Below, piece by piece: positions 1-44,065 of a DNA stretch of 44,065 nt. Source of the stretch: a virus; IMG/VR virus record IMGVR_UViG_3300048836_000016, positions 1-44,065 of that record; one strand, written 5' to 3'. Position 1 is the stretch's first letter. Each line of letters begins with the position of its first letter. The position numbers were made by a program, and so were the translations under genes. The notes under the pieces were generated by a model. It saw nothing but the letters and a program-made list of their open reading frames with translations. It was not told where the DNA came from and made no database searches.

Positions 1-66
1 AAATATACTTATTTTGATATAGAAACGCTTGATCATGTTATCTATGTTGCAGAATTTAACAAGTAA
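1..66 (+). CDS. 3' end of the 100-aa first early gene (copy of 43939-44004)
   Basis: The frame beginning at base 1 reads 21 residues ending in VAEFNK and a TAA. It is the same sequence as the end of the complete gene 43702-44004, cut by the linearisation point. It is not a separate gene; on the circle it is joined to 43702-43938. Function unknown. Confidence 0.9.
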   Translation, partial: KYTYFDIETLDHVIYVAEFNK

Positions 67-127
67 AGAGGAGGTGAGGGGTGGGGAGTAATCCCCACTA
101 AACCACAAAGACGGTCCCAAGTCCGTC
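1..127. repeat. Terminal redundancy, left copy
   Basis: Identical base for base to 43939-44065. An exact 127-bp overlap at both ends of a contig is the usual trace of a circular assembly graph, so the molecule is probably circular or circularly permuted, with a unit of about 43,938 bp. It carries the last 22 codons of the gene that starts at 43702 plus leader sequence of the next genes. A true short direct terminal repeat is possible but not needed to explain it. Confidence 0.95.
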
Positions 128-15223: not shown

Positions 15224-18200
15224 TTACTTACGCCTGTACTGCTTCTTAGTTATATCTATCAAATCTAAGTCAGGCTGGTCATCACTTAGATAATGATACA
15301 AGTTCCATGCTACAGTGTGTAGCTGTAAAGATGATCCTGTCAGATAAGATGCTGACTCCGTACCCTTCTCTATTTTGTCCTCCCATTCAGCATCAGAATC
15401 TAAAAGTATTTTAGCAGTTCTGATATAACTTTCAAGTGATGCTGTCATAGGGGATAACCTTAGTGAGCTTGTATACCCAACGCCTGTTATCTTAGCCATA
15501 GTGTAGGGACCAATATCACGCAAGATAGGGACTGTTGCCATAGCGTAGTTGACAGACTTAATAGATGCCCACTTGCCCCAACCGCCAAACATTCCTTCTT
15601 CATCTTCTTCAGGCTGGTCATCGTCTCTCAACATGCCCTCATAAATAGCAGGAGCAATAAAGAGAATAAGCATTGATCCCAATAAAGCAGGAACATTCCT
15701 TACTGACTTTACATCATGCCCAGCCCTTCTTGCAAGATTATAGACTACATTAAAATACTGAGTAAACATTGAAATAGCTTTAGCAAGCTCACTCTGATTT
15801 CTCTGTAATTTAGTCTGGTCAATAATACTTGACCCGCCCTGTGTTTGTCTTACTATGTCATCTGCGTATCCAACAGCCTTATCAACATCACCTTTATAAA
15901 GGTCAAGCCCCACCCTATATCCCTCTAGCCATGTAGGGATAGTGATAGTTCCGTCTGAGAAGTTGAATATTGACATAGCTATCTTCTTGTCCATTCTTGA
16001 CATTTGACCAAACTGCTTGTCAAGCAGGAACTCACGCATACTCGTTTCAATCAGTCCGTTGCGTTCTACCATGAATGGAGACATATCCATAACAAACTTC
16101 CAGTCCTTAGCCCATGTCCAAGGTCTTGCGTAGTACATTGCCATTGCCCTAGCTGTATTCTTGCCAAGAATATTAGCTGAGTTAAACCACCCAGATGACT
16201 GCAACATCAATACAGACAGCTTAAACATAATTATTGCCGCTGTAACCGCATGTCTTTGATGCCTCAGTGTGTTAGACAGCTTGTCGGTTGGCGTGGCAGG
16301 AGGCGTAGCAACATCACGTACCCAATCATCCATTACCTTTAGTCCAACCTTACCAACTCGCTCCGCTATCATTACACGCAGTTCCTTATTAAACAATATC
16401 TTGTTAGCATCTATAACCGCCTTTCTAAAGGCGAGGTCGTGCGTTACCTGTTCAAGATGCTTTCTTAGCCCGCCAAGGTCAAGCCTTACCTGATAGTTAG
16501 CATGAGCCGCCCTTGCTTTATAAGCACCCTGCCTTGTTGCCGCCCTGAACGGGGGCTGACTCTTAGTAAGTCCCTGCTCATACTCATCAGACTTATTGAT
16601 ATCAACGAGCTTGCTGTAGTCGATCACAAGGGGATAATACCCGCCTCTGTAAACACCGTGCTGTGTAGCGATAGGGATAGCTTCTTCTGTCTTAGGTTCA
16701 TACCCCAAGACTTCTCTGTTGAGTGCCTTCATCATCGGGAACAGTGTGTTAATTATGTCCCGCATGTCCTGCCCAAGGTCGAGTGCCTTTTTATCTAACT
16801 TACTAATAATAGCCTCAACCTGTTGCTCACTCCATTTTTTGCCTTCCATCAAACGAACCTTATTAGTCTCTGTACCTAAGTTCATATAGACACAGAATAT
16901 CTGTTCACCTGTGAGTGAGTACCCCAACTCCTGAATAAACACTTTCCTTTTAAGAAACTTACTCCATTGACCACGACCATAGTGCTTGAATATTGCATTG
17001 TCTATTCTGTCTGTGTAGTCTTTTAATAGAAGTACCTTAGTGTCGATAGCATCTGCAAAAGGTCTCCAAAGTATATCCGTAAAAGCACCAGGTTTTTCTA
17101 TACCCTTAGTGCCATCAAGCATAAGCAAGGTAGTTTGCGCTTTTTCCAACTGTGCGTTTATTGCATCAGGCATACCATGTAACGCTTCAAGTTTCCGCAT
17201 ATTTGGATCAGATGAGGTTATATGTGTTCGGGTTACTTTCTGTTTTTCAAGCGACTTCTTTAGTGCCTCGACCGCTTCATCATAAGTTTGTGCTTCTTCC
17301 GCTTTCTTGAAAAGCATAATACCCTTACCAATCTTCTCTATTGCCTTGATAGTGTTATATAGGCCTTCTATCTGATTATACGTCAGGGTATTAAAGTCTT
17401 TCTGTTTAAGCTGTCGTTGTATATCTTCCGGTAAGTCTATAGGGATACCTAACTCCTGCTGTTCAGCTATCCACTCGGCAATATCCTTACGTACAGCCAT
17501 TTCATCTTCGGATATTTTTTTAAACTCGTACCTTTCAAGGAGAGTGTCTATCTGGTCAAGTGCATCAGGGGCTATGCCGAATGTCTGTTTTCTCGAGCGA
17601 CCAGCCATCTTTTTAAGATACTTGACCATTGTATCAGAGGCAGTCTTTCGTGCCATGGACTCACTTGCAAGTGCGGCATTTATTATCTGCAACTCCTTCT
17701 GAGCAAGTGCGGTGTCCATGTCTTTATTCAAGATAGCACGTTCAGCCGCAAGTGCCGCCTTTCTTTCAAGGGCAATAAACCTTTTGAAAGCAATAGCATC
17801 TTTCCAAAGAAGTCCGTCAAGATGTTTCTCTGCTGAGCGTTTAGCCGCCTGTACCCTTGCACGTGCATAAGCCATCTTCAATGCCGCCTTACCTTTTTTC
17901 GCAAGGATAAGCCATTCTATGCCAAGCAGTTCAAGCCTGTTCTTTCCACGTATAGCTTTCTCTGATGCAAGGCGTACAGACTCAGGGTCTATGTCTACGT
18001 TCAACTCAGCATCAAGTTCAGCCTTAGCCTTCTCCTGTGCAACCTTGTCTATATCCCTTGCTGTTGCAAGGTCAAGGAACATCTCTGATGCAGAAGAATA
18101 TCCGTACTCCATAGCAATAACTTCGGGATCTGTGCCACCTTCTTTTCTGAACCACTTACTGTTGAACGTAGGAATGATAGTGTCAATGTCGGATATTTCA

Positions 18201-21200
18201 CGCTCCCCAAACGTTACAGCCATACCCAGTGAGGATACCAAGTCATTCATAATTGCCGCTGACTCGTAGTAATCAAAGGTAATGCCACCCTTTTTCTCAC
18301 TTATAGCAAGGAGCGTACGTATCTTGTTGACAGGTTCTTTCTCAAGGATAGCACGTATCTCTTTAAGTTTAGTTGCCATCTTACGTGCATATTCAATCTG
18401 CTTATCCTTCTTAAATAGCCTTTCGATAGGCTTCATCAAGCGAGCAAGCATAGTTTCACGTGCCTCTGCCTCTGCTTCTTCTTTTAGCGAGCCATACAGT
18501 TCAGCTTCTTCCGCTGTTACCTCAACGCCCTCCATCTGAGTAACATCTTTCTTGTAATTGGCAAGCGTTTCAACTTCAGTTATCTCATCTTCAGTGGCAA
18601 TCATTCTGTCAAATACAGCCTTGACTTCAAGGGATATTTCTACATTAAGTGCAGATACTTCCTTGTATATCCCAATAAGCCATTCCTTAAACTTGCGGAA
18701 GGTTCTTTTTAATCCGACAGAAGGTGCTTCACCTGTCATAAGATAAGCCTCAAAGGTACGTGCAAACTTCTCATGTGCCTCTGTGAGCCTGTCTGCATTA
18801 AGAGATGCAAGTGTTTCACCCTCTGACATGCCGAGATACTCTTTTAACACAGCGAAGTCTTTAGCTATCTGACTGTCAGGTGCAGACTGCAAAGCGTACA
18901 TCTCGGTCATTTTAAGCATAATATGCCCCATCTCGTGAGCGAAGGTTGAAGCATCACGGGATTTAAAGAAAGAGATTAAAGACTGACCTTCGGTAAAGGA
19001 TACTTGACCACGGGTATCTTGCTTGTATATTTCTTCAAGTATCTGAATGGCATCTTCGTTAAACATTACATAGTTATAGCTTTCTTTATCCTTGCCTCTA
19101 GCTGTGGCATCTTTGTATTTTATACCGATAATTCCATGTTCATTGAGCCAAGAAGAAGCAGACTCATCGCTACCAAGATTTTCAGAAAGCTCTGAATAAA
19201 ATTCTTCGCCACTTTTAACTGCGTTTTCGTTACGCTTTAAAACACGCAACTCATAAATGCTTCTTTCTGAAATTTTGGATTCCTTCCACGCTGTTTTTAC
19301 CGCTTCACTCTGTTCACTAAAAGCAGTATCCCATATTAAGTATTGTCCTGTATCATCTGGAATGTCTACTTTATAAAGTTGTCCTTCCGTAAACTGAAAA
19401 TCTTTTTGCCTTAAACCTATAAGAGCCTTACGTACATCAGACAACATTTCCTTGTCTTTTGTGTTTTTAGCCCTTTGAAGCTCTTGTGTTTTTTTATTTA
19501 TTGCCCTTTCAAGCACATCCCCACCGTCTGCCATTTCATCCCTTATTGCCTTTATGGTAAAAATCCGTGAAGAAGGAGATATTCCTGGTATTGATAAAAA
19601 GTAATCCTTTCCATTAACAGTTATTCCTTGCGACCAATCTAGTTTCCTATACCACTCTGCTATTTCTTTGTTCTCGGCAAAGTAAAGCCCGTATCCGTAA
19701 GCCTGCGCCCCTTCGCCAGTGCCGACCTTTTCAAGACTAAACCTATCTATTCCCCTGTAAGGCGTACCGTGATAAACAGGCTGGTCTAACACAGTTCCAT
19801 TTCCATCTATAGGAGCATACTGCCCTTGTCCTGCGTCTATCCAAGCGACATCTATTAATTTAACTTTTTTAGAATAAACCTTATTACCTTTTCCTGCATA
19901 TGTTTGTGCTTCTTTTTTGCTGGGTGTAACAAACACACCATTACCGATAGGGTTAGATGAATAAATAAATATCTCACCGACTTTTAATGCACTATTCATA
20001 TCTTTTTTTGTAAAGTCATCTGTGAAATCATCTTCTGATTCAGTAAATGCTTCTTCTGCGGTCATAATATCATCTATTGTTCGTATTCCTGTATGTATGT
20101 CATCTTTCATAGGATTACTTTTTAATATTATGTCAATTTGTTTTTGTTTTAAATTAGAAACATCCTGCCCCAACACAGTGCCATTCCCATCTTCAGGCAA
20201 GCCTATCCGCATACCTATTTCTGCGTTCTGCTCTGTAGGCATAATGCCCCTTGACTTAGCAAGAGTGTTTACCCATGCTGACCACAGCAAGGCATTACTT
20301 TCCGCTTCTTCGGCATTTAGTCCGTTAGAGAGCAACATAGCCTTAGTTTCCTGTCGCACCATTTCAAGGTCAGCACCGTAAGCATCTTCCTGTGCAATGG
20401 CTAACTTAGCTTCTTCGATAGACTTCTGTTTCTCTGCCTCATATTCAGCTAGGAAAGCCTGTGCCTCATCTGCTGTCATTTCGCCTTCTTTGAGACGGAT
20501 ACCTCCTGCGAGTGCTGAATGAGCGTCTGTTCCTGCAATCTTCTCAGCGTAAGTTGCAGTATTGACCGCAAGGTCTCCACCCTCTGTAAGCGATGTTTCG
20601 TATTCTTCCGTTATTCCTAGTTCCTCTGCAACATCAGCCGCCGATTGCCCAAAAACAGTCTGGAATTTCTCGGAGTCAATGTAGATAGTTTCAAGCCCAC
20701 CGTCTTTTGTAGCACTTGCAATAAGTTCCCTATAAGCACGTGGGAGTCTTTGTCTTACCTTAGAGTCTTTAGCGGCCATAGCAAGTTCGTTGAATAGTTC
20801 AGTATTCTGTGTTGCCCTGTTAGCCCTATTAAGGTCGACAGAGAGATTAGTCGCCGAGCCTAGCATAGGCACAAGTGCAAATGTTTCGGCTGCACCTTTT
20901 GCCTCTTGCACAAGAGATGTTATAAACTGGTTTAAGTCGGTATACTTACTCTCGTCAATACCTGACAGCTTTGTTGCCGCCAAACCGCCCATCTGTGTTG
21001 TTGCCTGCTGTACAACTTCCTGTGCTACGTTCTCAATGTAAGTTGTACCATAAGTCTTAGCAAAATTCTTTATTGCAGTTCTTGCTGTTGGTCTTTGCAA
21101 CGTAAGAAGCATAGCATTTCGTACTGCATCAGCACCACCTATACCTAGTTTGGCAAATGCTGACTTAAAGGGAGATACTATTGAGCCAAGCCCCAAAAGG

Positions 21201-22108
21201 ACTTCACTGCCCATATTAGCAAGCCCTGTGATAGAGGCGGCTACTTTTGCGACATCGTCATCTACTCCAGGAATATCCTTATATTCCCTCCATGCGTTTC
21301 CTGCTTCCATAGAGAATATAGATTCAGCCGCACCGAATGTAGCACCAACGCCAAGCCCTGTAACTGCGCCTCCTACAGCACCTATTACATTACCAACACC
21401 GGGAACAAACGACCCTGCGACCATGCCTGCGCTTCCATAAGCCAATACCTTCCTAAGTGTTTCAACCTGTTGCCCTGTTATTTCAGCCAAGCCCTGTAAC
21501 ATACGTTCAGACAAACTAGATTCAGCCAGTTTAGTTTGGCGTTCCTCAATGCCTTTTTCGTAAGAGGATATAGTCTGTTCAAGTGCTTTATTGTCAGATT
21601 CAAAATACATTTGCCTTGTGCCAAGTCTACCGACCGTACCAATATCCTTACCCACTGAGAAAGCAGTACCCATTTTAGAGAAGATACTCTCGTGCTGTTT
21701 GAGGTTATCTATGTCATCCCAAGCGAACCCCATGTTAGCACCGAGAAAGTTACCTGTAATGGGATATGCCTTTTCCATCTCATTCCAGTCTACCTTCGGT
21801 GCTTTCTCAAACTTTTTCTTGTCAATAGTTTCTTTAATTACTTCAGGCTTGCGGTCAAGTACAAAGTCAGGGAGTCCTGTCGTATCTTTAACATCTGCCC
21901 TTTGAGCAAGGGATTCTGCATCAAGTCCCCATGAGTCTTTATACTTCTCAGCAAGGTCATAAGCCATTGTACCCTTGCGGAGCAGTTTAAGGTTCTCTAC
22001 CTGTTTAGGGGCAAGAGGCTTTAATACAGCAGATTCTTCTATAGCCTGTGCATCATTTTCAAGCCCGAATTGCTCAAGCTCTATATCGTCTAATGGTCTA
22101 AGTGCCAT
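15224..22108 (-). CDS. Giant polyvalent ejection protein with ART and metallopeptidase motifs
   Basis: 2294 residues, the largest gene. Visible parts: a Gly-rich hydrophobic stretch (about 219-266: AYGSAGMVAGSFVPGVGNVI...) that could span a membrane; an ADP-ribosyltransferase-like domain with VYHGT (778-782) and GYGLYFAE (805-812); a zinc-peptidase motif HEMGH (1058-1062); long charged helical regions; and C-terminal apolar segments (about 1956-1980 and 2140-2160). This mixture fits the 'polyvalent proteins' that phages package and inject, and the position equals T7 gp16. It probably forms part of the DNA-ejection channel and delivers enzymatic domains into the host at entry. Enzyme activity is inferred from motifs. 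GGAGG precedes the ATG. Confidence 0.8.
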   Translation of the reverse strand: MALRPLDDIELEQFGLENDAQAIEESAVLKPLAPKQVENLKLLRKGTMAYDLAEKYKDSWGLDAESLAQRADVKDTTGLPDFVLDRKPEVIKETIDKKKFEKAPKVDWNEMEKAYPITGNFLGANMGFAWDDIDNLKQHESIFSKMGTAFSVGKDIGTVGRLGTRQMYFESDNKALEQTISSYEKGIEERQTKLAESSLSERMLQGLAEITGQQVETLRKVLAYGSAGMVAGSFVPGVGNVIGAVGGAVTGLGVGATFGAAESIFSMEAGNAWREYKDIPGVDDDVAKVAASITGLANMGSEVLLGLGSIVSPFKSAFAKLGIGGADAVRNAMLLTLQRPTARTAIKNFAKTYGTTYIENVAQEVVQQATTQMGGLAATKLSGIDESKYTDLNQFITSLVQEAKGAAETFALVPMLGSATNLSVDLNRANRATQNTELFNELAMAAKDSKVRQRLPRAYRELIASATKDGGLETIYIDSEKFQTVFGQSAADVAEELGITEEYETSLTEGGDLAVNTATYAEKIAGTDAHSALAGGIRLKEGEMTADEAQAFLAEYEAEKQKSIEEAKLAIAQEDAYGADLEMVRQETKAMLLSNGLNAEEAESNALLWSAWVNTLAKSRGIMPTEQNAEIGMRIGLPEDGNGTVLGQDVSNLKQKQIDIILKSNPMKDDIHTGIRTIDDIMTAEEAFTESEDDFTDDFTKKDMNSALKVGEIFIYSSNPIGNGVFVTPSKKEAQTYAGKGNKVYSKKVKLIDVAWIDAGQGQYAPIDGNGTVLDQPVYHGTPYRGIDRFSLEKVGTGEGAQAYGYGLYFAENKEIAEWYRKLDWSQGITVNGKDYFLSIPGISPSSRIFTIKAIRDEMADGGDVLERAINKKTQELQRAKNTKDKEMLSDVRKALIGLRQKDFQFTEGQLYKVDIPDDTGQYLIWDTAFSEQSEAVKTAWKESKISERSIYELRVLKRNENAVKSGEEFYSELSENLGSDESASSWLNEHGIIGIKYKDATARGKDKESYNYVMFNEDAIQILEEIYKQDTRGQVSFTEGQSLISFFKSRDASTFAHEMGHIMLKMTEMYALQSAPDSQIAKDFAVLKEYLGMSEGETLASLNADRLTEAHEKFARTFEAYLMTGEAPSVGLKRTFRKFKEWLIGIYKEVSALNVEISLEVKAVFDRMIATEDEITEVETLANYKKDVTQMEGVEVTAEEAELYGSLKEEAEAEARETMLARLMKPIERLFKKDKQIEYARKMATKLKEIRAILEKEPVNKIRTLLAISEKKGGITFDYYESAAIMNDLVSSLGMAVTFGEREISDIDTIIPTFNSKWFRKEGGTDPEVIAMEYGYSSASEMFLDLATARDIDKVAQEKAKAELDAELNVDIDPESVRLASEKAIRGKNRLELLGIEWLILAKKGKAALKMAYARARVQAAKRSAEKHLDGLLWKDAIAFKRFIALERKAALAAERAILNKDMDTALAQKELQIINAALASESMARKTASDTMVKYLKKMAGRSRKQTFGIAPDALDQIDTLLERYEFKKISEDEMAVRKDIAEWIAEQQELGIPIDLPEDIQRQLKQKDFNTLTYNQIEGLYNTIKAIEKIGKGIMLFKKAEEAQTYDEAVEALKKSLEKQKVTRTHITSSDPNMRKLEALHGMPDAINAQLEKAQTTLLMLDGTKGIEKPGAFTDILWRPFADAIDTKVLLLKDYTDRIDNAIFKHYGRGQWSKFLKRKVFIQELGYSLTGEQIFCVYMNLGTETNKVRLMEGKKWSEQQVEAIISKLDKKALDLGQDMRDIINTLFPMMKALNREVLGYEPKTEEAIPIATQHGVYRGGYYPLVIDYSKLVDINKSDEYEQGLTKSQPPFRAATRQGAYKARAAHANYQVRLDLGGLRKHLEQVTHDLAFRKAVIDANKILFNKELRVMIAERVGKVGLKVMDDWVRDVATPPATPTDKLSNTLRHQRHAVTAAIIMFKLSVLMLQSSGWFNSANILGKNTARAMAMYYARPWTWAKDWKFVMDMSPFMVERNGLIETSMREFLLDKQFGQMSRMDKKIAMSIFNFSDGTITIPTWLEGYRVGLDLYKGDVDKAVGYADDIVRQTQGGSSIIDQTKLQRNQSELAKAISMFTQYFNVVYNLARRAGHDVKSVRNVPALLGSMLILFIAPAIYEGMLRDDDQPEEDEEGMFGGWGKWASIKSVNYAMATVPILRDIGPYTMAKITGVGYTSSLRLSPMTASLESYIRTAKILLDSDAEWEDKIEKGTESASYLTGSSLQLHTVAWNLYHYLSDDQPDLDLIDITKKQYRRK

Positions 22109-39845: not shown

Positions 39846-40625
39846 TCACACTTTACCAAGTAAAACTGTGATTTTCTTATTCTTCTTGCCTCCGTGCAAC
39901 TCTACAATGGGACAGCCTAACTCCTCAGGTGGGAAATTCTTTTGTATAGCGTAGCCTTCCCTCTCCTGATAGCTCCCCGAATTGACAAACCACATAGTTT
40001 TCTTGATAACCTCATCGCAATGTCGTTGTGGTATATAGACATTCTCGGGAAAAGAAATGATCCCGTGAGTATGCCCCATACAATAACAATCACAGATGAC
40101 AATGTTCTTTAACCGCTCTATTGCGTTAGCCTTAGCACCTCTTGTACGCCCGTTAGAACTCCCATGAGTGAGATATATCGTATAGTAATTATCACGCCCA
40201 CGAGCTGGATTATATCCAAAACGCACTTTGAGAAGCACTTCATGCCCAAAGAATGGGACATCTAACTTGTATGAGAGTATCTCAGGTGTAGACAAGCCTA
40301 CCTCCTTATCTATCCTATCCTCGTGGTTGCCTGTAATAATGCCCCATATGCGGTCTTTAATGGGTAACAAGGCTTTCTCAGTGACCTCTATCTGCTCCCT
40401 TGGTGAATACTTCTGCCTGTATATATCACCTACGGAGCATTTTGTAACTACATCCATCATATCCCCATTGAGAACACAATACCTGTTTGGAGCCGCCTTG
40501 ATATAGTCTATGTACTGCTTAAACAGCGCATCATTGAAGAACGGGCTTCCGATGTGCATATCAGACAGCGGAAGAAACTCTACGGTCTCGTACTCATTCG
40601 ACAGGTTGACCGGATATACTCGCAC
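39846..40625 (-). CDS. Calcineurin-like metallophosphoesterase
   Basis: 259 residues with all motifs of the family: SDMHIG (D22, H24), NGDMMD (53-58), GNHED (99-103), YLTHG (H154) and GHTHG (184-188). It could act on DNA ends, nucleotides or proteins; phages carry such enzymes with several roles. GTG start at 40625 with AGGAGGG upstream. It is the first gene after the terminase terminator and the structured gene-free region. Confidence 0.88.
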   Translation of the reverse strand: MRVYPVNLSNEYETVEFLPLSDMHIGSPFFNDALFKQYIDYIKAAPNRYCVLNGDMMDVVTKCSVGDIYRQKYSPREQIEVTEKALLPIKDRIWGIITGNHEDRIDKEVGLSTPEILSYKLDVPFFGHEVLLKVRFGYNPARGRDNYYTIYLTHGSSNGRTRGAKANAIERLKNIVICDCYCMGHTHGIISFPENVYIPQRHCDEVIKKTMWFVNSGSYQEREGYAIQKNFPPEELGCPIVELHGGKKNKKITVLLGKV

Positions 40626-40741: not shown

Positions 40742-40893
40742 TAACTTGTGTCTCACAAAAGGCACAAGATGAAGCACAAGTTAAATTGTGTCTCAATGGT
40801 GAGTGACAATACCTCACATTTCCTCGTTGGGCGATAGATGCCAGTTCTATCCTCATTGAGACATCAATTCCGTGATACCCCTTTAACTTGTGC
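40742..40893. ncRNA. Nested inverted-repeat element, candidate structured RNA
   Basis: A perfect 12-bp pair (40774-40785 with 40882-40893) encloses a perfect 10-bp pair (40789-40798 with 40854-40863), which encloses two hairpins: GTGAG/CTCAC (40799-40803 with 40813-40817) and GATAGA/TCTATC (40833-40838 with 40846-40851). Together they make a three-way-junction fold. An upstream segment (40742-40750) can pair with 40775-40783 instead, competing with the outer stem, and TTGTGTCTCA occurs twice (40746-40755, 40786-40795). Strand and function unknown; a binding site or origin is the alternative. Confidence 0.55.
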
Positions 40894-40969
40894 CGTGGGT
40901 ATTTCCAAAATGGAAACAACCATCAATTACCTGACCCCACGAAACTGATATCATGTCGGTGACGTTAAC

Positions 40970-40999
40970 AAAATGATAAACCCCTCGAAAGTGAGGGGG
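40970..40999 (-). terminator. Intrinsic terminator after the terminase genes
   Basis: Minus strand CCCCTC, loop ACTTTC, GAGGGG (40998 to 40981), then TTTATCATTTTG. It lies about 85 bases after the large terminase stop and would end the terS-terL transcript. Confidence 0.75.
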
Positions 41000-41082: not shown

Positions 41083-42486
41083 TTACCGCTTACCCCTGCC
41101 ACGCCTGTCAAGGTGATTGTAGTCCTTCTTAACCCTCGAAGGTATGAGCGACAGAGTATCCATCATAGCGTTACATTGCACTTCCTCGGCAAACGTCATA
41201 GCAAGCGCATCAGCCTTATCAGGTGAAGGCAGTCCACGTTTACGCATGTCCTCTTTGCGCTCTAGCCCTATCTTCCCGTTGGCTGAATAGTAATACTCAG
41301 GAGCGCAGAGGTCATCACGCAGGTCGGTGTTGTCAGGAACACAGCCTCCCGCCTCCAGCCACTCCTTCATTTTCCACCACATCTCGACACGCTTGTTTAC
41401 AAACCGAGTTGAATCACCAGCCGAGCCTCCGAAGTAGACAGGCATCGGGTTAAAATGCAGAGTGCGAAGCGTATCAACTACCCCTGCTCCCCATCCTGTA
41501 ACATCAACAAAGCAAGCATCGCAGTCATTCTCACGCCATATACGTGCTATAGCCTGTGCAAACTGTGCAGTATCCACGTTGCGCGAACTCCATAACTCCT
41601 GCGCAACCAAACCTTGACGCATATAAATAACGCTGCTGTCATCACCAAAATAGCTGACATCACAGCCAAGGATCTTGGGCATATGTCCGTAAACGTTTAT
41701 CCTGTGCGCCTGGCGGATAGACTTGTCAATCAAATCAGGGCTTATAAGCTGCGCCATACTAGTTGACGGGAACTCACCGAGAACGCGCACTTTATAAATA
41801 TCACTGTCGGCTCCGTAGGCTTCGGCAATCTCAACGGCGTAGTCTGGACTTACATGCGGGCTATCTAGACAACTGAACGTCAGCCGCTGCCATCTGTCTC
41901 TGTTGCGGTGGAACGCATCATAGAAATAGCCGGTGTTCCTTGTAGGGTTTGCGGCCATGAGAACTCTTGCGCCAACCGTTGACAATGTACCTTGAGCAAC
42001 CTGGAACACAACGTCAGGAACTCCGGAGGCTTCGTCTATGAGAAAGAACAGGTTGTCATCATGGAACCCCTGTAATGCTTCCGGGCTTTCTTTTCGACCT
42101 GTACGAGCGACAGCAAACCCACTGGCACCGCTATAGCGTACCATGTCGGCGGTTATCTCAAGGGAAGATTTCCACGGCTCAAGCAGTTTGTCCCCCCACT
42201 TGCGGACCTCCGACCATAACACATCGCTTAACTGATGAGCCGTAGGAGCTGTAACAGGGATTTTAATATGCTGATGAGTTGTAATCCCCCATAATATCAG
42301 CCAGGACAACAACGTTGATTTGCCCGTACCATGCCCGGACTTAATAGCCACTCTTGCATTGTCGCAGGCAAAAGCCCGTAACGCTTCAGTCTGTTGAGGC
42401 GAAGGAACAACTCCGAGACACTCAATAACAAACTTAACGGGATCGTTACGCCATGAGATAACAAGGTCAACTATGCGCTCATCCAT
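41083..42486 (-). CDS. terL: Terminase large subunit
   Basis: 467 residues from the ATG at 42486 (GAGGG eight bases upstream; a GTG lies 3 bases before it). ATPase: Walker A SGHGTGKST (about 50-58), Walker B FFLIDEAS (147-154) and the coupling segment LMAANPT. Nuclease: GCDVSYFGDD (about 274-283), CFVDVTGWGAG (Asp near 328) and SPDKADALAM (Asp near 425), the RNase H-like acidic triad. It drives DNA packaging and cuts the concatemer. It overlaps the small terminase stop by eight bases. Confidence 0.93.
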   Translation of the reverse strand: MDERIVDLVISWRNDPVKFVIECLGVVPSPQQTEALRAFACDNARVAIKSGHGTGKSTLLSWLILWGITTHQHIKIPVTAPTAHQLSDVLWSEVRKWGDKLLEPWKSSLEITADMVRYSGASGFAVARTGRKESPEALQGFHDDNLFFLIDEASGVPDVVFQVAQGTLSTVGARVLMAANPTRNTGYFYDAFHRNRDRWQRLTFSCLDSPHVSPDYAVEIAEAYGADSDIYKVRVLGEFPSTSMAQLISPDLIDKSIRQAHRINVYGHMPKILGCDVSYFGDDSSVIYMRQGLVAQELWSSRNVDTAQFAQAIARIWRENDCDACFVDVTGWGAGVVDTLRTLHFNPMPVYFGGSAGDSTRFVNKRVEMWWKMKEWLEAGGCVPDNTDLRDDLCAPEYYYSANGKIGLERKEDMRKRGLPSPDKADALAMTFAEEVQCNAMMDTLSLIPSRVKKDYNHLDRRGRGKR

Positions 42487-43012
42487 CACTTTTACCCTCA
42501 GAAGGGAGGTATAAAGTATCCTCCCGAGTTAAAACAGGTGGCTCTGCGTGGCTTGTAGTGAGTGCCTGCCTAGCTTCGACCATCTCTAACAGCTGTTTGG
42601 GCGACATTTCAACGTTTAATTGAGTTGTAGTTTTCATTGCCAAGACATCAGCTATTAAATTAAGTGAGTTGCTAGCCGAACGAGCGTCTAGCATTTTATA
42701 AACTTCGAGGCCGTCCTTATCCTTGAGCGGAGTCAATATTTCCTGCATGCCATTTTTTGCAATCCTTACTGCTGCTGAAACGACCCATTCCTTATCGATC
42801 TTAACATGTTCATAAACTTCTGCGACAATTGGGCGGGACAATTCGTTGATACGATTCTTAACTTCGAACTTTTTAAGCAACTTGTTTCCAATTGCTCCGG
42901 CAGTTTTTTCCGAATAACCCGCTCTAATAGCGGACTGCGTTCCATTTGCGTCTTTAATATACTCCTGGCAAAACAATTCTTGTTTGTCATTTAATTTGCG
43001 AATTCGCCCCAC
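42479..43012 (-). CDS. terS: Terminase small subunit
   Basis: KLNDKQELFCQEYIKDANGT then QSAIRAGYSEKTAGAIGNKL is the classic N-terminal helix-turn-helix of small terminases (LT-x-KQ-x-x-F...N-x-T-x-A-x-x-AGYS), followed by an oligomerisation region and TTQLNVEMSPKQLLEMVEAR. No good start: GTG at 43012 or 43015 sits only 2-5 bases from AGAGG, with TTG at 43024/43027 as alternatives. A longer frame to 43120 would be translated through a terminator hairpin and is rejected. About 177 residues. Confidence 0.82.
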   Translation of the reverse strand: MGRIRKLNDKQELFCQEYIKDANGTQSAIRAGYSEKTAGAIGNKLLKKFEVKNRINELSRPIVAEVYEHVKIDKEWVVSAAVRIAKNGMQEILTPLKDKDGLEVYKMLDARSASNSLNLIADVLAMKTTTQLNVEMSPKQLLEMVEARQALTTSHAEPPVLTREDTLYLPSEGKSDG

Positions 43013-43701: not shown

Positions 43702-44004
43702 ATGACGGCAGCAATTAAAAACTACAGTGGAAAGACATGGAAATTTATTCAGGACTATTATAGCAAGAACCCAGAAGGACATTATTTCGATCACGACACA
43801 TTAAAGTTTTTTGGAGAACGCACATCGGAAATGAGAGTATTAAAAAATACAACAGTAATTAAAAATTACAAGGGTGAAAAACAGGAATGTTATATTTTAT
43901 CATCTTTACAGCGTAATCACCCAAGCGGACCCACACGGAAATATACTTATTTTGATATAGAAACGCTTGATCATGTTATCTATGTTGCAGAATTTAACAA
44001 GTAA
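43702..44004 (+). CDS. First early protein, unknown function (100 aa)
   Basis: ATG at 43702 follows GGGGGAGAG. Its last 66 bases are repeated at 1-66. The product opens MTAAIKNYSGKTWKFIQDYY, is rich in Tyr, Lys and Asn, and has FGERTSEMRVLKNTTVIKNY; the second half reads like a small winged-helix layout (helix, then VIKNYKGEKQECYILSS and YTYFDIETLDHVIYV strands). That is only an impression. As the first gene after the control region it may be an early regulator or host-takeover protein. No family recognised. Confidence 0.75.
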   Translation: MTAAIKNYSGKTWKFIQDYYSKNPEGHYFDHDTLKFFGERTSEMRVLKNTTVIKNYKGEKQECYILSSLQRNHPSGPTRKYTYFDIETLDHVIYVAEFNK

Positions 44005-44065
44005 AGAGGAGGTGAGGGGTGGGGAGTAATCCCCACTAAACCACAAAGACGGTCCCAAGTCCGTC
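43939..44065. repeat. Terminal redundancy, right copy
   Basis: Exact copy of 1-127. It contains the 3' end of the 43702 gene and the first two leader hairpin segments. See the left copy; merging the two gives the circular unit. Confidence 0.95.

What the first reader, a model, noticed from the sequence alone, without database searches (positions are those of the whole stretch)
40742..40893. Nested long inverted repeats forming a possible three-way-junction RNA
In a gene-free region between two operons, a perfect 12-bp helix encloses a perfect 10-bp helix and two hairpins, with a duplicated segment able to compete for the outer strand. So many exact pairs in 120 bases strongly suggest selection. 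Possible roles: a phage non-coding RNA (a packaging or regulatory RNA near the terminase gene), a switch in the leader of the metallophosphoesterase operon, a packaging site, or a second origin. I know no family with this layout.
Basis: partly seen in the sequence, partly recalled or inferred. Interest (0 to 1): 0.66.

Follow-up and report, generated by a model that had tools for sequence, protein, structure and literature searches.

The report
Solitary tRNA-shaped skipping-rope phage RNA
The paired sequence in this phage is a skipping-rope RNA, a small structured RNA of unknown function; elsewhere its relatives sit next to a gene for a toxin-like RNA-cutting enzyme, so the RNA is probably that enzyme's antidote, and the phage appears to carry the antidote alone.

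Summary
The inverted repeats are real and exceed chance, but the functional strand is minus and the outer 12-bp helix is not conserved. The core (40789-40863, minus) is a skipping-rope RNA (Rfam RF02924, 45.2 bits, cut-off 36.7), an orphan family. It lies on the sense strand of the late genes, between the terminase large subunit and a phosphoesterase. In the only close relative (L139) the core is 100% identical, but the outer-helix partner falls in a ~59-bp segment that is missing there, and the neighbouring genes differ.

The new result concerns the family. PBECR3 genes (predicted barnase/colicin-D/RelE-fold RNases) found by protein alone carry this RNA next door in 36 of 39 loci. Unbiased draws of Clostridia and Bacilli genomes give 27/32 and 11/18 small PBECR3 genes with the RNA adjacent (chance about 0.03). 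Paired RNAs mostly have their own promoter and terminator. Gene order varies; some loci have the promoter-RNA-terminator-toxin layout of type III toxin-antitoxins. The predicted PBECR3 structure resembles colicin D. The RNA has tRNA-like helix order with covarying loop-loop pairing.

Best reading: RNA antitoxin or decoy of a tRNase-like toxin, carried solitary by this phage, perhaps as counter-defence. Antitoxin and counter-defence steps are inferred.

The parts
40789..40863 (-). Skipping-rope RNA core (RF02924); Rfam match 40791-40861, own model R1 match 40790-40862
   Evidence: cmscan 45.2 bits, cut-off 36.7; R1 59.6 bits (the window is one of the sequences R1 was built from)
40854..40863 (-). 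P1 5' strand (UGUCUCAAUG), pairs with 40789-40798
   Evidence: perfect 10-bp inverted repeat; P1 covaries across 43 relatives
40789..40798 (-). P1 3' strand (CAUUGAGACA)
40833..40851 (-). P2 hairpin GAUAG-AACUGGCAU-CUAUC (D-arm position)
   Evidence: P2 99.5% paired with covariation
40822..40831 (-). P3 position, short and variable (anticodon-arm position)
40799..40817 (-). P4 hairpin GUGAG-GUAUUGUCA-CUCAC (T-arm position), abuts P1 without linker
   Evidence: P4 100% paired with covariation
40839..40843 (-). Loop 2 side of the loop-loop pairing (UGGCA)
   Evidence: pairs with 40804-40808; loop-loop covariation
40804..40808 (-). Loop 4 side of the loop-loop pairing (UGUCA)
40742..40783 (-). 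Hairpin directly 3' of the RNA; its loop segment is inverted in close relative L139; no U-tract
   Evidence: inverted repeat I2; alignment with L139
   Evidence: alignment with L139; near-duplicated ends 40862/40921 (repeat D5)
40922..40983 (-). Upstream block 89% identical in L139; possible promoter or control region, no sigma-70 match at the expected place
   Evidence: no 12-mer of it recurs elsewhere in the window
41083..42489 (-). Terminase large subunit (upstream neighbour)
   Evidence: phrog_2, E 1.9e-53
39846..40625 (-). Calcineurin-like phosphoesterase (downstream neighbour)
   Evidence: phrog_7339 E 7.9e-36; PF00149

Best explanation
The element is a skipping-rope RNA (RF02924) made from the minus strand. 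Shown: its identity; its fold (tRNA-like order of four helix positions with a pairing between loops 2 and 4); and that elsewhere the family forms a two-gene module with a small PBECR3 protein of predicted colicin-D/RelE-like fold. Inferred: in that module the RNA is the antidote of the RNase, docking on it as a tRNA-shaped decoy or inhibitor, as RNA antitoxins do in type III toxin-antitoxin systems. Also inferred, less firmly: this phage carries only the RNA, as do phages that keep it in tRNA arrays, so that it can neutralise such a nuclease encoded by the host or a resident prophage. My estimates: identity 0.97; functional pairing of the family with PBECR3 0.9; RNA as antidote rather than another role 0.6; solitary phage copies as counter-defence 0.4.
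For: Identity. Fold: 43 relatives, 92% of cells paired, covariation score 0.605 against 0.198 shuffled; across 47 distinct loop pairs, loop 2-loop 4 complementarity 4.04 against 3.27 +/- 0.10 shuffled (0/500), and 5.08 against 3.40 +/- 0.27 (0/2000) in 13 divergent ones. Pairing with PBECR3: 18 of 49 RNA-bearing viral records have PF18812, adjacent to the RNA where mapped; ascertained by protein alone, 36 of 39 PBECR3 loci have the RNA beside the gene; unbiased genome draws give 27/32 and 11/18 small PBECR3 genes with the RNA within 600 nt, expected 0.03 and 0.02, genome co-occurrence p 1e-19 and 1.5e-10. Architecture: promoter-like site (score 9 or more) before 83% and terminator-like hairpin after 82% of paired RNAs (terminator 6% in shuffles); RNA after gene, before gene, or convergent, which fits action in trans. 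Protein: predicted structure pLDDT 96.8, highest structural matches include the colicin D tRNase domain (Z 6.9, 2.7 A over 85 residues), then BrnT, CDI nuclease and RelE; conserved helix His and C-terminal Thr/Ser as in PBECR RNases (PMC5512222). Antidote: RNAs without PBECR3 are commoner than small PBECR3 without RNA (39/78 against 12/50, p 0.005). Precedents: AbiF/RCd22 (PMC12373285), phage RNA mimic of ToxI (PMC3475682), Racrs (PMC10651486).
Against: The window encodes no PBECR3 and its host is unknown, so no target nuclease is identified. About half of the RNAs in the sampled bacterial genomes lack a recognisable PBECR3 neighbour. No promoter was identified for the window RNA. PBECR3 domains in large polyvalent frames lack the RNA in 8 of 9 cases, so not every PBECR3 needs it. 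The colicin D match (Z 6.9) is below the aligner's own caution level of 8. The p value for asymmetry may reflect unequal detection of RNA and protein. Inhibition itself is untested.
Confidence: 0.45

Rival explanations
1. The RNA is a cofactor, activator or specificity partner of the PBECR3 nuclease, so that the pair forms an active RNA-protein effector rather than a toxin and its antidote.
For: The tight pairing and conserved compact fold fit a ribonucleoprotein as well as an inhibitor.
Against: Solitary RNAs are common in phages and chromosomes while small PBECR3 genes more rarely lack the RNA. The RNA's own promoter and terminator, and the promoter-RNA-terminator-gene order in Bacilli, resemble RNA antitoxin loci.
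Confidence: 0.2
2. Solitary skipping-rope RNAs in phages act on something other than PBECR3: as tRNA-shaped decoys for host tRNA-handling enzymes, or against other defence RNases.
For: Several phages keep the RNA in a tRNA array, e.g. Bacillus phage P59 among 15 tRNA genes and Lactococcus phage 949 between tRNA-Asp and tRNA-Pro. One RNA follows an Abi_2 gene (L118) and one a ParE/RelE-like toxin gene (L325).
Against: The only strongly recurrent nuclease partner across samples is PBECR3.
Confidence: 0.25
3. A packaging RNA, packaging site or leader switch for the terminase or phosphoesterase genes of this phage.
For: The RNA lies between TerL and the phosphoesterase gene here, and in L139 upstream of a TerS gene.
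Against: 0 of 50 records with TerL relatives and 0 of 3 portal regions of related phages carry it. Family members lie in tRNA arrays and bacterial chromosomes, in any orientation. No match to any packaging RNA family in the window.
Confidence: 0.04
4. The 12-bp outer helix and its competing repeats form a three-way junction or a switch around the RNA.
For: Perfect 12-bp complementarity and duplicated arms; it is in the plus-strand minimum-energy fold.
Against: The 5' arm lies in a ~59-bp segment missing from L139, whose RNA core is otherwise identical; the 3' hairpin loop is inverted there. The arm copies read as products of duplication and inversion at a hairpin.
Confidence: 0.05

Closest known systems
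skipping-rope RNA (Rfam RF02924)
   Same: Score above the curated cut-off, P1/P2/P4 with variable P3, conserved GAGG and GA(A/G)AUG blocks, loop-loop pseudoknot (a pseudoknot is shown for this family in the Rfam 14 paper, PMC7779021).
   Different: Rfam types it only as an sRNA gene, and the held library gives no function. The window copy has its loop 4 pairing register shifted by one base and a short P3.
Type III toxin-antitoxin systems (ToxIN and relatives) and phage RNA mimics of ToxI
   Same: Structured RNA next to an RNase gene; in Bacilli the order promoter-RNA-terminator-gene; a solitary RNA in a phage resembles the phage PhiTE escape by ToxI-like RNA (PMC3475682).
   Different: The RNase is of PBECR type rather than ToxN; the RNA is usually a single tRNA-shaped unit rather than short tandem repeats; inhibition is untested.
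AbiF/RCd22 (Abi_2 protein with abiF RNA motif RF03085)
   Same: A prophage-encoded RNase-like toxin neutralised by a neighbouring structured RNA that carries an Rfam motif (PMC12373285).
   Different: Different RNA fold and a HEPN rather than BECR protein, though one skipping-rope RNA (L118) does follow an Abi_2 gene.
Colicin D and other BECR tRNases
   Same: Among the top structural matches of the predicted PBECR3 model.
   Different: Colicin D has a protein immunity partner (1v74 title); the PBECR3 module has an RNA neighbour instead.
tRNA
   Same: Order and linkers of helices (2, 1, 4 and 0 nt), loop 2-loop 4 pairing, placement inside tRNA arrays of some phages.
   Different: No anticodon arm of standard size, no T-loop sequence, not called by ARAGORN.

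Membership tests
skipping-rope RNA RF02924 | Covariance model score at or above the gathering cut-off (36.7 bits) | tested here: met
   45.2 bits, E 1.3e-7; same match again
skipping-rope RNA RF02924 | P1, P2 and P4 helices in the family arrangement | tested here: met
   P1 10 bp, P2 5 bp, P4 5 bp; cloverleaf -22.2 kcal/mol against MFE -24.5, without counting the loop-loop pairing
skipping-rope RNA RF02924 | Pseudoknot between the two large loops | tested here: met
   UGGCA/UGUCA in the window; family-wide covariation
Type III toxin-antitoxin system | RNA gene adjacent to an RNase toxin gene | tested here: not met
   The window has no PBECR3. Met elsewhere in the RNA family
[quoted passage not shown]
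   PBECR3 matches Pfam PF18812 and colicin D/RelE folds; ToxN is not among the rows shown, which does not exclude it
Type III toxin-antitoxin system | RNA directly inhibits the toxin | not testable with these tools
   Needs expression and binding assays
tRNA | Recognised as tRNA by ARAGORN | tested here: not met
   0 tRNA genes in the window
phage packaging RNA (phi29 pRNA type) | Match to a packaging RNA family of Rfam | tested here: not met
   Only Twister-P5 and skipping-rope reach their cut-offs in the window
cis-acting leader or riboswitch of the downstream gene | Conserved position upstream of the same gene | tested here: not met
   Neighbours differ between the window and L139 and across the family, in both orders and orientations

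The most novel reading that the evidence does not exclude
Skipping-rope RNAs are tRNA-shaped RNA antitoxins of a widespread, partly prophage-borne, colicin-D-like RNase (PBECR3), a new type III-like toxin-antitoxin or defence family. Phages such as this one, and phages with the RNA in tRNA arrays, carry solitary copies as RNA-based counter-defence.
Probability: 0.4. Interest if true: 0.88.

Novelty: new member of a known kind. Interest (0 to 1): 0.68.

Why it matters
Skipping-rope RNA is catalogued as an sRNA of unknown function; no function was found in the held literature. Finding it beside one family of predicted RNases in most loci ascertained by the protein gives the orphan RNA a partner and makes its function directly testable. 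It also suggests a new kind of RNA-controlled toxin and another RNA-based way, besides ToxI mimics and RNA anti-CRISPRs, for phages to disarm bacterial defence.

Tried and rejected
TerL as a marker for related phages: only 41-43% identical relatives, none with the RNA. Phosphoesterase and portal as markers in viral contigs: no confirmed relative. Two exact-pattern scans for the window's RNA and its upstream block: only L139. DNA similarity of the region to phage records: none. PBECR3 in phage records, and the phage 949 RNA in plasmids: none. Sequence search of PBECR3 against solved structures: nothing credible. PADLOC and NCBIfam: PBECR3 not represented beyond one weak PADLOC row. Foldseek against PDB gave no match below E 0.05; the colicin D link comes from the second-look aligner. 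A simple shuffle of loop pairs on the first, uniform set did not separate from chance; the test became decisive only with divergent subtypes. The first PBECR3 alignment was too diverse for a collection scan. The weak snoRNA and c-di-GMP riboswitch matches in the region are below their cut-offs. A sigma-70 promoter for the window RNA was not found at the expected place.

Full report
What is in the window. Both strands fold better than all 200 shuffles. A scan against all Rfam families finds a skipping-rope RNA, RF02924, at 40791-40861 on the minus strand, 45.2 bits against a cut-off of 36.7 (again). The minus strand is also the coding strand of the neighbouring late genes: terminase small and large subunits upstream; phosphoesterase, methyltransferase and portal downstream.

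Fold. Reading 5' to 3' on the minus strand: P1, a 2-nt linker, P2 (5 bp, 9-nt loop), a 1-nt linker, a short variable P3, a 4-nt linker, P4 (5 bp, 8-9-nt loop), then P1 with no linker. This is the order and spacing of acceptor, D, anticodon and T arms of tRNA (tRNA layout from general knowledge). Loops 2 and 4 pair (UGGCA with UGUCA in the window), where D and T loops meet in tRNA. On 43 relatives the structure pairs in 92% of cells, with covariation score 0.605 against 0.198 shuffled. Across 47 distinct loop pairs, almost all from bacterial genomes, the loop-loop complementarity exceeds all shuffles, most clearly in 13 divergent ones such as UGUGC/GCACA, CCCGC/GCGGG and CGUGGC/GCCACG. The tRNA comparison rests on architecture only; ARAGORN does not call it a tRNA. 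The linker lengths in the viral set were partly imposed by my search pattern, but the Rfam consensus shows the same layout independently.

The outer helix. Contig L139 is the only close relative found. Its RNA core matches the window without a mismatch, and the match runs on into the 3' flank. A ~59-bp segment of the window just upstream, which holds the 5' arm of the 12-bp helix, is absent there, and the loop of the hairpin just downstream is inverted. In L139 the RNA lies downstream of a phosphoesterase with 53% amino-acid identity to the window's over the part held, and upstream of a different terminase small subunit. So the RNA cassette is strongly conserved or recently exchanged while its neighbours differ, and the outer helix is most likely a local accident. 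One relative is thin evidence; more would settle it.

The family elsewhere. A pattern scan of viral contigs gave 86 stretches. Of 80 records tested, 69 had a match over the RF02924 cut-off and 70 had a match at E 0.01. None of 50 records with terminase relatives has one. Contexts fall into three kinds. In tRNA arrays the RNA occupies a tRNA slot; cultured examples are Lactococcus phage 949 and Bacillus phage P59, where nothing is annotated at that place. In prophage-like contigs it lies near integrases and repressors. [quoted passage not shown]

Independent tests of that link. PBECR3 genes fetched from genome and viral contigs by protein pattern alone have the RNA beside them in 36 of 39 loci. 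Caveat: the probe was built from PBECR3 proteins that lie beside the RNA, so it samples that subfamily. The unbiased test is the genome draw with the public Pfam and Rfam models. In 291 Clostridia genomes 27 of 32 small PBECR3 genes have the RNA within 600 nt, always on the same strand after the gene. In 395 Bacilli genomes it is 11 of 18, of which 7 have the RNA before the gene. Expected by chance are 0.03 and 0.02. PBECR3 domains in large frames (polyvalent proteins) have it in 1 of 9 cases. Four viral loci are convergent. About half of the RNAs in these genomes have no recognised PBECR3 neighbour; their neighbours are mixed, including housekeeping genes and one ParE-type toxin.

Architecture of the pair. 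Where PBECR3 is present, a sigma-70-like promoter lies just before the RNA in 83% and a terminator-like hairpin follows in 82% (6% in shuffles); for other RNAs the figures are 35% and 42%. Bacilli loci with the RNA first, read by eye, mostly show the order promoter region, RNA, terminator-like hairpin, PBECR3 gene. This is the layout of type III toxin-antitoxin loci. Variable order and convergent cases argue against a leader or riboswitch.

The protein. A PBECR3 model built on 41 sequences has mean pLDDT 96.8. The second-look aligner puts the colicin D tRNase domain at the top (Z 6.9, 2.7 A over 85 residues), tied with other RNase toxins and followed by CDI nuclease and RelE-type toxins. Z is below 8, so fold and function should not be over-read; three colicin D entries among the top six and the Pfam assignment agree. 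A helix histidine and a C-terminal Thr/Ser are conserved in most members, as described for active PBECR families (PMC5512222).

Mechanism. A tRNase-like toxin paired with an independently expressed, stable, tRNA-shaped RNA suggests that the RNA occupies the tRNA-binding surface and blocks the enzyme. The abiF RNA motif proved to be an antitoxin RNA for a prophage Abi_2 protein (PMC12373285), and one skipping-rope RNA follows an Abi_2 gene (L118). The excess of RNA without nuclease over nuclease without RNA (39/78 against 12/50, p 0.005) fits an antidote, though detection limits could bias it. For a phage, carrying only the antidote would be counter-defence, as in the ToxI mimic of phage PhiTE (PMC3475682) and RNA anti-CRISPRs (PMC10651486). 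Shown: identity, fold, genomic pairing, promoter/terminator layout. Inferred: inhibition, tRNA mimicry, counter-defence.

Novelty. The window element is a new member of a known RNA family. The association of that family with PBECR3 nucleases was not found in the held library: of 15 papers with the term 'skipping-rope' two concern the RNA, and neither gives a function in the passages found; of six hits for 'PBECR' the polyvalent-protein paper that I searched does not mention such an RNA in the passages seen. The original description of the RNA motif (from memory, Weinberg and colleagues 2017) is not held, so prior mention there cannot be excluded.

Noticed in passing
window 1-127 and 43939-44065; ribozyme 73-126 and 44011-44064 (+): The window has a 127-bp direct terminal repeat that contains a Twister-P5 ribozyme (57.8 bits), so the record is probably a complete circular or terminally redundant genome with one twister ribozyme.
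   Followed up: partly
window 40742-40783 and L139: The loop of the hairpin after the RNA is inverted in L139 while the stem is largely kept, a possible hairpin-loop inversion by template switching.
   Followed up: partly
window 15224-22108 (-): A 2294-aa ORF with LPD22 and a borderline ART-PolyVal match, likely a polyvalent protein; no PBECR domain detected.
   Followed up: partly
L118:2339-2420 and L325:1503-1576: Skipping-rope RNAs directly downstream of an Abi_2 (AbiF/D-type) gene and of a ParE/RelE-type toxin gene, so partners other than PBECR3 may exist.
   Followed up: partly
L122, L130, L131, L160, L237 and G135:C70: Tandem or neighbouring pairs of skipping-rope RNAs, in some cases within about 100 nt.
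   Followed up: no
Lactococcus phage 949 (L393) and Bacillus phage P59 (L394): Unannotated skipping-rope RNAs inside tRNA arrays of cultured phages; in P59 it fills a slot between tRNA-Asp and tRNA-Pro.
   Followed up: partly
window about 12700: GC skew and coding strand switch together near 12.7 kb, dividing a plus-strand arm from the minus-strand late arm.
   Followed up: no
window 40981-40998 (-): Terminator-like hairpin just past the TerL stop codon, upstream of the RNA.
   Followed up: no
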